From contig JASKOT010000009.1 of assembly GCA_032158125.1 (NCBI GenBank), positions 372,001 through 436,000 on the forward strand: a stretch of 64,000 nt of DNA, read 5' to 3'. Below are positions 39,141 through 42,743 of the stretch, one piece after another. The stretch comes from Papiliotrema nemorosa (lineage: Eukaryota; Basidiomycota; Tremellomycetes; Tremellales; Rhynchogastremaceae). The translations under genes and the position numbers were made by a program. The notes under the pieces were generated by a model, which saw nothing but the letters and a program-made list of their open reading frames with translations, was not told where the DNA came from and searched no databases. Within the stretch, counting starts at the first letter, position 1. Every line of letters starts with the position of its first letter.

Positions 39141-42100
39141 TCAGACCAACCTCTCCACCTTCTCTTTCTCTTCCTCTTCTTCACCTTCCCTCCAGTTCTT
39201 GGCTATCCATCCACCAAGATTCTTATGTATCATCATCAAACCCAGCACGACCGGCAAATACCACAGACTGACAAAGAAACATTTCTTTGCCGTTTGTTCC
39301 GTTGTATTCCTCCAAAACGTCCAAGCAGACTGGACGAATACCGCGTTGGGTACTGCAGACGTGAGCGCAAAGCTCCAATCTACCGATCCAGACATCGGCG
39401 CGAGGATGGCAGTGAAGGGAACAAGGAGTATGGCGTGTCGTAATGAGACCAGTGCGTTCAGGCGGGGTGACAGGACTGATAGCATGGGGTATCCCGATAG
39501 GGCGTAGTTGGATCGAATGAGGTGTGAGAGGGCATTAAAATGAGGGAATTGCCAGGAGAAGAGTAGCAGGGATAAGACGTATGCTGTGAGAGGGTTAGGC
39601 GAGGAGTCGGTGGGGAACTCCAAGGAGAAGGAGCGGAAAGTGAGTGGTTGGTCCCATGTCGGCCATAAAGCTCCGCCAGTCGCTGTCCAACCCATCAGAG
39701 GCGTGATGGCTCCCACGACGGCACCCACCCAGGTATTGGCGACAGTGAATCGTTTCATCGGGGTGTAGATCCCGGCATAGAGGATAAGATTCCCGAGACC
39801 AAGTGCGGCGGTGGTGGGATTGCATCCGTAGTAGAGGATAGTACCGCCCAAGACGGTGCATACGACGCCGAATACCGCAGCGTGAAACGGTGTAATGCGC
39901 CTCGTGACCAAAGGCCGCACACGAGTCCTGGGCGTCTGCGCATCAAGCGGAACCTCTAGTATCTGGTTGAAGGTGTTTGCGGCGGCCGAAGTGAACCATG
40001 TCCCCGCTGTCAAGCTGAGAAGCAGTGGTATATCGGTAGGAAGGGGAGACAATGCGAGACCGGTGGTGGCTGTGAGGGTCATCAGGATGGATAGATTCCG
40101 CTTCGACAATTGAGAGTATAGGCCAATCAGCCTTTTCAGCGTGAGAGGAGGATTCGGCTTGTAGGCTTCCAAAGGGGCGGTAGGGGGCCCAGGAGCAGGA
40201 ACGTTGAGGTCGGGAAAAGGTGGAGCTTCGGCTTGAGCAGCTTGGTACACTGTGCCTATCCTAGCTGCTGCAGGGACAGGCTGCGCCGAGAAAAAAGGTC
40301 GAGCAAGGGAAGCTGTATGGATCGATCTCCGTTGACCGGCGGAGAAGGGTGAAGCGTTGATAGACTCCTCGCGCTTTGTTCGAGGCGCTTGAGCTGTGAC
40401 AAGAACATTTTGTTGCTCATTTTGCTCATTCTGCTCTTCTTCTCCCACCGTTGCCGGCTCGCCAATCTTCGCCATTTGCGATTCGACCATCTTTCTGAAC
40501 TTTCCACCTCGGCGCGAAATCAACTCATCGTATGATCCATCTTCGGCCACCGCTCCTCCTTCCAGCAACACCACTCGGTCCGCCTGAGCGATAGAGGATA
40601 GTCGGTGGGCAATAAGGATGACAGTCATGTCGGAAGTATCGAACAAGTTGTCCAACGCAGCATTGACAGCCCTCTCAGACTCGGAGTCCAAAGCACTAGT
40701 TGCTTCGTCCATGAGCAAGACCGACGGGTTGCCGACCAAGGCTCGAGCAATGGCGATCCGTTGTCGCTGCCCACCGGAAAGACTAGACTTGGTGATGACC
40801 GTATCATATCCTTCTGGCATGGATTCGATGAAATCACAATGAGCTACCTTGGCCGCTCGTATGACCTCTTGACGAGAGGCGTTCGGGTGTCCATATGCAA
40901 TGTTCTCGTGAATCGTTCCGCCAAACAAAACAGGATCCTGAGGTACAACTCCGATCCGAGATCTCCAAGATTCAGGGACAAAAGTTTTGATATCGGTTCC
41001 GTCGAGTAGCACCTGACCTTTTGATGGGTCGTAGAATCGAAGCAGTAGGAGCTGGATAGACGACTTGCCACTTCCACTACCTCCACTGACTATTAGTTTA
41101 TTCTCAGCAGTGATCATATGGCTTACACGAGTGCGATCCGGTCCCCTCTGTCTATACGCAGATTCAGCCCGTCCAAGACCTTGACATCTGGTCGAGCGGG
41201 ATAGGCAAATTGGACACCTCGAAGTTCGATGGATCCGCCAGTGACACGCGGTACTGGTTCACCGATGGAGAGTGGGACAGGAGAAGGCAGAGCGTAAAGA
41301 CCGAGGATACGTTGAGAAGCTCCAACACCCTTCATGAGACCCGTGAAGAACGTTGCGAGGGCTATAAGTCAGTTTCATCCGCACGGCGTGCTCACTATTC
41401 AAAGACCACTCGATCCAGTTGACATATATGAACAACGCCGTCATGTCTCCGACCGAGATCTCCCCTCTTTGCATTAAAACTCCACCATAGATCAAAATCC
41501 CGATGATTCCCAAATCCCCCGCAGCCTCATTTGCCGCGCTGAACAGTCCATTCGCCTTGGTCTCCTTCTTTTGCAGCTGATACACTCCATCCACCTTGTC
41601 CTCAAAGAGCTTTTGCTCGGCGGGTTGGGTATTTGACGCAGTGACGGTCCGATGAGCTGATAATCTCTCCTCGGCAAGTTTGGACATTCCACCCATTGCT
41701 TCTTGCGTTTTCAGCGATAGTTTCCGTATAAACCGACCGTAGAAGAATGACCCGATGGATATAGGGGGGATGACAAAGAGCATAACGGTCGTCAAGGCTG
41801 GGGAGATGAGCCACATGGCGACTATTCCTGCTCCAGCACCGAGGACAGCTTTCAATCCTTCTCCCAGATTTTCCGAGAGCGATTGTCCCACAATCGAAGT
41901 ATCTTGACCTAGTCGTGAAAGCGCATCTCCAACTCCGCTCGTTTCGATGTGCGAAGGTGGCATCGCCATGTATTTCCCATAAGTCCTGTTTCTGATCATG
42001 ACCGCGGTTCTTTGACCCGACAGGCGCAGCGCAATACTCCTCGCTCCGTTGGCCGCGGCACCGATCATCAGCGTCACACCAAGAGCCACGGTTGCCCATT

Positions 42101-42743
42101 CGATGGGCAGACCAAAGAGGAGGGTTTGCTCAGATCCAGGGGTGAAAAAGTCTATTATGCGTCCGATGGCCCATGGGAGAGCGTAATTGACAGCTGTGGA
42201 GATGACAAGACATACCACTCCAATGGAAAGCAATTTCCACTGCGGCTTGGCGAGCTTGAGAAGGTTGATGATGGATGCAGCATCGGGCATCTTTTCCTCT
42301 TCCTTCTTGGCTATTGCCTTGTCTTGGGTTGTTGAGTCGGAGGGGGTAACAGGTGGAGGCGCAGGTGTAGGGGGACTCGAAGGGGTAGTGTCGGATGTGG
42401 GGGACGAGGTGGGAGCATTAGGGCGCGGTGGTGGTTGATCGGAAATGGAAGTGGTGGTGGTCGAATTATGCCGTATCAGAGATAGGATCGGTGAACTCCT
42501 CGAAGTAGATCGAGCTGAAGGCGAAAGTGATGTCGACCGTGAAGTCAACGAAGAAAAGAGCGAAATCGAAGATTCGGATCGATGGGTGGAGAAACAGCGT
42601 TGACCAGTGAAGCAGGATCCTCTTTGCTGTATGCTGAATGCCGGCGCAGCTGCCATAGGTATTCTCGACGGTCCCGCATGACATGCCCGACTGCAGCTGG
42701 CCAGATTTCTAGCCATGCCCAGCCCGATTTCGCGAGCTGCCAT
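39141..42743 (-). CDS. Fusion: mitochondrial ABCB10/MDL1-type ABC transporter + COX10 heme O synthase
   Basis: Exons at 41396-42743, 41127-41361 and 39141-41085 join to 3528 nt, a 1175-residue protein. Residues 1-150 are an Arg/Ser/Pro-rich mitochondrial leader and linker. The ABC transmembrane domain spans about 160-450 (IGVVCLVISTAVNYALPWAIGRI, MQRGEISVGDMTALFIYVNW). The nucleotide-binding domain has Walker A GGSGSGKSS (529-537), Q-loop VVPQDPVLF, signature LSGGQRQR (630-637), Walker B VLLMDEATS and H-loop His688. After a linker, residues from about 842 are a complete UbiA-family COX10: NTFNQILEVPLDAQTPRTR (polyprenyl-diphosphate site, Asn898 and Asp909), RPLVTRRITP, YTPMKRFTVANTWVGAVVGA and LFSWQFPHFNALSH. 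No stop or frameshift separates the parts. It would combine a matrix-facing ATPase exporter and heme B farnesylation in one inner-membrane polypeptide, unless processed. Divergent from UTP11. Confidence 0.9.
40143..40490 (-). other. Linker between ABC and COX10 domains with internal presequence-like segment
   Basis: Encodes residues of about 727-842 of the fusion protein. It starts with a Glu/Gln/Asn-rich part (GEEEQNEQNEQQN). At 40284-40331 comes RRSIHTASLARPFFSA (residues 780-795): basic, hydroxylated, hydrophobic and without acidic residues, as in a mitochondrial presequence with an Arg shortly before a Phe-Phe/Ser cleavage-like site. A Pro/Ala-rich stretch follows before COX10. Consistent with a retained COX10 leader; processing is inferred. 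Confidence 0.55.

What the first reader, a model, noticed from the sequence alone, without database searches (positions are those of the whole stretch)
39141..42743. ABC half transporter (MDL1/ABCB10-type) fused in frame to COX10 heme O synthase
Seen: the last exon (39141-41085) is one open frame containing the ABC Walker A, signature, Walker B and H-loop and, with no stop, a full COX10 with both polyprenyl-diphosphate regions. Three exons sum to exactly 1176 codons including stop. Established: ABCB10/MDL1 sits in the mitochondrial inner membrane, and ABCB10 is tied to heme biology in animals; COX10 farnesylates heme B to heme O in the same membrane. Inference: this is a genuine Rosetta-stone fusion that could couple ATP-driven export or heme handling to heme O synthesis, or fix their 1:1 stoichiometry. 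I do not know of a described case but could not search.
Basis: partly seen in the sequence, partly recalled or inferred. Interest (0 to 1): 0.92.

Follow-up and report, generated by a model that had tools for sequence, protein, structure and literature searches.

The report
Two mitochondrial proteins, one fungal gene
In this yeast-like fungus one gene encodes both a mitochondrial ABC transporter and the enzyme that starts making the special heme of respiration, and a targeting-signal-like stretch between them suggests that the pair is made together and then cut apart inside the mitochondrion.

Summary
Exons 42743-41396, 41361-41127 and 41085-39141 (minus strand) give one 1175-residue protein: presequence, ABC half transporter, linker, complete COX10. 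Of 88 hits scored on the COX10 part, 52 carry both domains. A short-search tree puts one fusion origin at the base of the Tremellales/Trichosporonales rows. The host assembly shows no other COX10.

The heme-coupling reading is weaker. 69 of 71 fused linkers hold an Arg-rich R/K-R-x-x-H element (0.5% of shuffles) roughly where a free COX10 has its presequence, though free COX10s lack that exact motif (0 of 48). The ABC half is the more diverged of two paralogues: in one species 427 against 502 bits to human ABCB10. Smut fungi fused COX10 to other mitochondrial proteins. In Cryptococcus bacillisporus and kin the two are annotated apart. I favour a mitochondrial tandem precursor cut by the processing peptidase, like yeast Arg5,6. 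Cleavage is not shown. Five paper searches listed no description of the fusion.

The parts
39141..42743 (-). whole fused gene, start codon to stop, three exons, 1175 aa
41396..42743 (-). exon 1: N-terminal presequence, spacer and ABC transmembrane domain
   Evidence: Pfam ABC_membrane residues 173-442 = 42227-41418
41362..41395 (-). intron 1, 34 nt
   Evidence: removal restores WIEWSLNTLATFFTGLMKG, close to the relatives
41127..41361 (-). exon 2: end of membrane domain, start of nucleotide-binding domain
41086..41126 (-). intron 2, 41 nt
39141..41085 (-). exon 3: rest of nucleotide-binding domain, linker and all of COX10 in one open frame
40695..41176 (-). ABC nucleotide-binding domain (Pfam span residues 512-658; spans intron 2)
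40362..40460 (-). acidic, poorly conserved spacer after the ABC domain (residues 737-769)
   Evidence: position; spacer class D+E 16.9%, mean pairwise identity 0.24 in 27 full-length fusions
40278..40361 (-). internal presequence-like element INASPFSAGQRRSIHTASLARPFFSAQP (residues 770-797)
   Evidence: [RK]R..H[TSNV] in 66 of 66 linkers, 69 of 71 with shorter frames added; D+E 3.1%, K+R 13.6%
40146..40277 (-). N-terminal extension of COX10 (residues 798-841)
39264..40076 (-). UbiA/COX10 catalytic domain (residues 865-1135) with two prenyl-diphosphate regions at 39977-39909 and 39767-39687
   Evidence: identity of the two motifs recalled
42564..42743 (-). N-terminal mitochondrial presequence region (residues 1-60)
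   Evidence: position; N-terminal class D+E 2.7%, K+R 13.0%

Best explanation
The gene encodes a mitochondrial tandem precursor. One mRNA makes one chain that is imported by its N-terminal presequence; the ABC half transporter (a diverged MPE/ABCB10-family paralogue) and COX10 heme O synthase both insert in the inner membrane. The linker, which would lie in the matrix between the ABC nucleotide-binding domain and the COX10 N-terminus, holds a presequence-like element, probably left from a once free COX10, and the mitochondrial processing peptidase cuts there to release two proteins made 1:1. Shown: the frame, the domains, conservation in many species, a single COX10 in the assembly, the composition and position of the element, one fusion origin on a short-search tree. 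Inferred: import, topology (recalled for both families), descent of the element from a COX10 presequence, and cleavage.
For: Element [RK]R..H[TSNV] in 66 of 66 fused linkers (65 distinct), against 177 of 33000 shuffled, and outside the linker in 0 of 66 chains. With five shorter frames that start in the ABC tail it is 69 of 71; P0103 and P0109 lack the exact form. It lies a median 74 residues before the COX10 core; free COX10s have a median 90.5 residues before the core, 48 counted. Its composition (D+E 3.1%, K+R 13.6%) matches the true N-terminal presequence (2.7%, 13.0%), not the adjoining spacer (16.9%, 9.9%), and it is better conserved (0.43 against 0.25 and 0.24; 27 full-length fusions). 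The free sister P0111 has SFFSPHPTP near its N-terminus; compare RPFFSPHPTP in fused P0100. AlphaFold2 on the relative P0006: two folded modules, residues 716-821 with pLDDT under 50. Smuts: CCDC90-like/TauD/COX10 chains with R-x-[FYL]-[SHT]-[ST] before COX10 in 14 of 14 readable linkers of 16 tried, 11% of shuffles. Precedent: the processing peptidase cuts Arg5,6 internally; Rsm22-Cox11 and Etp1 of fission yeast were found in silico to have similar signals (PMC8847149, one passage).
Against: No cleavage data. The motif pattern was drawn from the alignment, and the rows are related, so shuffles overstate its weight. The motif occurs before the core in 0 of 48 free COX10s, so it is not a general COX10 presequence mark. 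No targeting predictor was at hand; a home-made composition score put the linker above the rest of the chain, N-terminus excepted, in only 12 of 26 proteins (in the window it passes narrowly, 6.81 against 6.12). The acid-free stretch alone is not rare in shuffles (1689 of 13200). A strict R-10 motif occurs in 24 of 66 and R-3 in 12 of 66 (motifs recalled), so there is no invariant cut site. For the smut linkers my first, stricter pattern matched only 7 of 16. The element could be kept because it is part of mature COX10.
Confidence: 0.57

Rival explanations
1. The chain stays whole: COX10 is a permanent C-terminal domain of an ABC homodimer, which holds heme O synthase beside a transporter of heme-related metabolites (and perhaps ferrochelatase), coupling or channelling heme b to heme O.
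For: Both halves are under strong constraint (TMD 0.82, NBD 0.85, COX10 core 0.80 mean pairwise identity, 27 full-length fusions). In animals ABCB10 and ABCB7 form a complex with ferrochelatase (PMC9133952 and PMC4545792, passages). The fusion has lasted in many species.
Against: The fused ABC is the more diverged paralogue. The linker is predicted disordered and its spacer is poorly conserved. Cryptococcus bacillisporus and kin are annotated with the two apart, and smuts have COX10 behind other proteins. COX10 is not named in the two ferrochelatase papers (0 occurrences in each main text).
Confidence: 0.23
2. The shared frame is incidental: the two proteins are mainly made from separate transcripts or by internal translation starts in the linker, the long frame being a minor product.
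For: Dioszegia COX10 is annotated as 385 aa starting at MSRPFFSAHT (P0094); Tremella mesenterica has an ABC model that ends in the spacer, marked partial (P0208), and no Tremella mesenterica COX10 row was seen in the listed rows; P0102 and P0204 are separate models.
Against: A Met within 30 residues upstream of the element is present in only 8 of 66, though 18 of 66 have one inside the motif. The nearest upstream Met in the window (residue 732, from the positions) precedes the acidic spacer, so an ATG start there would not expose the element. 51 proteins other than the window's own keep both domains in one chain.
Confidence: 0.15
3. Gene-model, assembly or annotation artefact.
For: Introns are unusually short (34 and 41 nt).
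Against: The junction lies inside one exon and is repeated in 52 of 88 hits from several sources.
Confidence: 0.02

Closest known systems
Arg5,6 of Saccharomyces cerevisiae (mitochondrial tandem protein cut by the processing peptidase)
   Same: two mitochondrial proteins in one chain, internal processing at the junction (PMC8847149, one passage)
   Different: different proteins; both parts here look like polytopic membrane proteins; cleavage here is inferred
Rsm22-Cox11 and Etp1 of Schizosaccharomyces pombe (composite precursors)
   Same: listed as composite precursors with internal targeting-like sequences and cut sites found in silico; both involve cytochrome oxidase biogenesis factors (Etp1 as Cox15 with ferredoxin: recalled)
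   Different: other partners; no ABC transporter
Human ABCB10 / yeast Mdl1 (MPE half transporters)
   Same: human ABCB10 is the best solved-fold match for the relative P0006, 40% identity
   Different: a free paralogue in the same genome is of the line nearer to ABCB10; C-terminal COX10
COX10 / heme O synthase (TIGR01473, UbiA family)
   Same: above one curated cut-off (221.3 against 210.3 bits); only copy found
   Different: not free; below the cut-off of NF003349 (154.6 against 246)
Ustilaginomycotina CCDC90-like/TauD/COX10 chains
   Same: COX10 last, Arg-rich junction before it
   Different: other partners; the two rows tried lie apart from the fused clade on the COX10 tree (used as outgroup)

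Membership tests
MPE/ABCB10-type mitochondrial ABC half transporter | one membrane domain plus one nucleotide-binding domain with Walker A, signature, Walker B, H-loop | tested here: met
MPE/ABCB10-type mitochondrial ABC half transporter | closest to ABCB10 among half transporters of known structure | tested here: met
   421.7 bits to ABCB10 against 296.8 to ABCB8, list cut at 1e-80; fold ranks 1-6 are ABCB10 (relative P0006)
ABCB10/Mdl1 orthologue sensu stricto | the genome's gene nearest to ABCB10 | tested here: not met
   in Uapishka the free paralogue scores 501.9, the fused half 427.3; own-genome copy of the free line on C1: seven pieces 59-91% identical to P0216 over residues 144-647, two N-terminal pieces 38-42%
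COX10 heme O synthase | family profiles above curated cut-off | tested here: met
   TIGR01473 221.3 against 210.3 and UbiA 170.3 against 34.2; but NF003349 154.6 against 246, not reached
COX10 heme O synthase | both prenyl-diphosphate/Mg motifs present | tested here: met
   residues 898-920 and 968-994; motif identity recalled, judged by sight
COX10 heme O synthase | makes heme O | not testable with these tools
   needs complementation or heme analysis
Mitochondrial tandem precursor (Arg5,6 type) | two mitochondrial proteins in one frame, conserved | tested here: met
Mitochondrial tandem precursor (Arg5,6 type) | internal targeting-like sequence at the junction | tested here: inconclusive
   motif, position and composition fit; home-made score 12 of 26; exact motif absent from 48 of 48 free COX10s; no predictor at hand
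Mitochondrial tandem precursor (Arg5,6 type) | cut by the processing peptidase | not testable with these tools
   experiment needed

The most novel reading that the evidence does not exclude
The chain is not cut: the active unit is an ABC homodimer carrying two COX10 domains, an ATP-driven transporter physically joined to heme O synthase, used by a large group of fungi and secondarily taken apart in the lineage of pathogenic Cryptococcus.
Probability: 0.2. Interest if true: 0.85.

Novelty: new member of a known kind. Interest (0 to 1): 0.55.

Why it matters
If cut, it adds a conserved pair of polytopic inner-membrane proteins to the known mitochondrial tandem precursors, and suggests that fungi have built polyproteins around COX10 more than once, with one apparent reversal. 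If not cut, it points to a physical link between an MPE transporter of unknown substrate and heme O synthesis. Either way the pair is a clue to what the second, diverged MPE transporter of these fungi does, and one immunoblot would decide between the readings.

Tried and rejected
Artefact or chance open frame: rejected, since 52 of 88 hits repeat the architecture. The set of 66 fused chains was picked by a rule that asks for both parts in one chain, so its unbroken frame is by construction and is not counted as evidence. A second COX10: none found; the other UbiA gene over the cut-off (C25, L018) reads like COQ2 by sight, and a third, weaker UbiA match (C25:47369, below cut-off) was not followed. 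Acid-free stretch as a test of presequence character: not decisive (1689 of 13200 shuffles as long). Composition score: inconclusive (12 of 26), confounded by membrane helices. Strict R-10 or R-3 motifs: 24 and 12 of 66. Internal ATG start: not conserved (8 of 66 upstream), though 18 of 66 have a Met inside the motif and 36 of 66 between motif and core. Smut linkers: first pattern 7 of 16, then a wider one 14 of 14 with 2 unreadable. The count of free COX10s (54, median 91) wrongly held frames that are pieces of fused chains, and P0102 and P0094; recounted (48, median 90.5, the truncated P0110 at 12 still in). Exact motif in free COX10s: 0 of 48. Because of this last result I lowered the best explanation from 0.60 to 0.57. 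Whether P0102 and P0204 lie at one locus or two could not be settled: no eukaryote DNA other than the window's assembly was available, the species name of P0204 is cut off after Cryptococcus, and that the two clusters (66 and 49 members) span the whole neoformans/gattii complex is my inference from their size. Papers for gene numbers of these two: none seen in listings or passages. The first intron scan printed no model because its minimum intron length was 35 nt; repeated with 28 nt. Trees are short searches with SH-aLRT only; the ABC tree carries a long-branch warning; rows were chosen by me (41 proteins plus the window for COX10, 24 plus the window for ABC), and two rows labelled fused (P0103, P0109) are short frames that start in the ABC tail.

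Full report
What is there. The minus-strand gene 42743-39141 has three exons (42743-41396, 41361-41127, 41085-39141) with two very short GT-AG introns of 34 and 41 nt and encodes 1175 residues. Pfam finds ABC_membrane, ABC_tran and UbiA far above cut-off. The COX10 part passes the curated heme o synthase model TIGR01473 (221.3 against 210.3 bits) but not the second such model, NF003349 (154.6 against 246). The junction between the ABC domain and COX10 lies inside exon 3, so it does not depend on an intron call.

Is it more than chance. A search scored on the COX10 part alone, with candidates of 0.55 to 1.75 times 1175 residues, gave 88 proteins; rows P0001-P0052 (52 of 88, P0001 being the window's own frame) list both PF01040 and PF00005. 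Named hosts include Kwoniella, Cryptococcus wingfieldii and depauperatus, Naematelia, Kockovaella, Vanrija, Cutaneotrichosporon and Cryptotrichosporon, which I place in Tremellales and Trichosporonales from memory. In the window's own 19.2-Mb, 68-contig assembly the COX10 part has a single match even at E<=1, so this is the only COX10 found; completeness of that assembly is unknown.

Origin. On a COX10 tree of 42 rows (short search) the 22 fused rows fall in one starred clade (97) that also holds two rows labelled free, nested inside: P0102 (named for Cryptococcus bacillisporus; 66 member sequences) and P0094 of Dioszegia. Outside it stand free COX10s: a metagenome protein P0111 as sister, then Naganishia and unnamed rows, Phaffia, mushrooms and smuts. 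The simplest reading is one fusion in the ancestor of Tremellales and Trichosporonales. On the ABC tree the free P0204 (a Cryptococcus, 49 members) sits among the fused Cryptococcus rows, and the partial Tremella mesenterica row also lies inside the fused clade; that tree carries a long-branch warning. P0102 and P0204 begin alike (MISRKGLGFAAN and MLSRQGLGLAAN; 0 of 100000 shuffles score as high). P0204 is the best match to the start of P0102 among the session's N-termini (43, next 32), while the start of P0204 is matched as well by a fused Kwoniella protein (44). So this free COX10 carries the start of the transporter: either the fused gene was duplicated and each copy lost one half, or two transcripts have related first exons. 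These tools could not settle it. The Dioszegia model starts mid-linker at MSRPFFSAHT and may be a real short gene or a truncated model.

The linker. Alignment shows an acidic variable spacer followed by a conserved Arg-rich element, in the window INASPFSAGQRRSIHTASLARPFFSAQP (40361-40278). A pattern drawn from that alignment, [RK]R..H[TSNV], occurs in 66 of 66 linkers and in 177 of 33000 shuffled ones, and nowhere else in those 66 chains; with five shorter frames that start in the ABC tail it is 69 of 71. In 27 full-length fusions the element has D+E 3.1% and K+R 13.6%, almost the same as the N-terminal presequence (2.7%, 13.0%) and unlike the spacer (16.9%, 9.9%); mean pairwise identity is 0.43, against 0.25 and 0.24. 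It sits a median 74 residues before the COX10 core; free COX10s have a median 90.5 residues in all before the core (48 counted). The free sister P0111 shows SFFSPHPTP near its N-terminus, like RPFFSPHPTP in fused P0100. I read the element as a presequence retained from a once free COX10. Against this: the exact motif is absent from 48 of 48 free COX10s, the acid-free stretch is not rare in shuffles (1689 of 13200), a simple composition score favours the linker in only 12 of 26, and strict cleavage motifs are in a minority (24 and 12 of 66). AlphaFold2 on P0006 gives two folded modules with residues 716-821 under pLDDT 50 and pTM 0.45, so no fixed arrangement of the two halves is predicted.

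The ABC half. Its best half-transporter matches among solved structures are human ABCB10. The genome has a second, free MPE-type gene on C1. In Uapishka, which has both, the free paralogue P0216 scores 501.9 bits against ABCB10 and the fused half of P0009 427.3; the window's half scores 421.7. P0216 is also nearer to a Sporobolomyces transporter than the window's half is (611 against 515 bits). A 2010 survey already noted two MPE genes in C. neoformans from a lineage-specific duplication (PMC2848647, passages). The heme role reported for ABCB10 in animals (PMC4545792 and PMC9133952, passages) therefore cannot simply be carried over to the fused half.

A telling parallel. In Ustilaginomycotina 16 of the 88 hits list PF02668 and PF07798 with COX10; two checked by hmmscan read CCDC90-like, TauD-family, COX10 in that order. 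A first strict pattern matched 7 of 16 of the linkers before COX10; a wider one, R-x-[FYL]-[SHT]-[ST], matches 14 of 14 readable (2 of 16 lacked my anchors), against 11% of shuffles. COX10 has thus been placed behind unrelated proteins at least twice, each time with an Arg-rich junction. That argues that what is tolerated or favoured is a cuttable precursor rather than one special partnership.

Mechanism and verdict. Best supported: a mitochondrial tandem precursor, cut in the matrix, as shown for Arg5,6 and predicted for Rsm22-Cox11 and Etp1 (PMC8847149, one passage; the primary paper was not held). Confidence 0.57. A permanent fusion that couples the two activities stays possible (about 0.2) and would be the more interesting result. 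Literature: five searches of the held library aimed at the fusion listed 20 of 39, 6 of 6, 1, 1 and 0 papers; I saw the listings and read passages in two of them (PMC12136443; PMC11256324). None described the fusion. Public protein records do carry it, often named protoheme IX farnesyltransferase, so the sequence is known and only a description appears to be missing. Filed as a new member of a known kind.

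Noticed in passing
P0055-P0076 (16 of the 88 proteins), Ustilaginomycotina: A three-part chain: CCDC90-like (MCUR1/Fmp32 family, name recalled), TauD-family dioxygenase (BBOX-like), COX10, with Arg/Ser-rich stretches before the second and third parts.
   Followed up: partly
P0102 and P0204 (Cryptococcus bacillisporus and kin): COX10 and the ABC transporter are annotated apart, nested in the fused clade, and both start with a transporter-like N-terminus: an apparent gene fission.
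   Followed up: partly
G000:C1:575854-578275 (L020): A free MPE/ABCB10-type paralogue in many pieces (introns), of the line closer to human ABCB10 than the fused half.
   Followed up: partly
window 43049-44226, + strand: A Utp11 gene (PF03998) runs head to head with the fusion; by sight the start codons are about 300 bases apart, perhaps a shared promoter.
   Followed up: no
window 41395-41362: A 34-nt intron, very short for a fungus.
   Followed up: no
P0216 (Tremellales sp. Uapishka_1): The free paralogue's model runs on into a thaumatin domain; probably two genes merged by annotation.
   Followed up: no
P0084, P0086, P0080: Other long COX10 models: with EF-hand and PF00569 domains in two fungal assemblies (Polycauliona, Variospora), and with PF03567 in the nematode Parastrongyloides; may be annotation mergers.
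   Followed up: no
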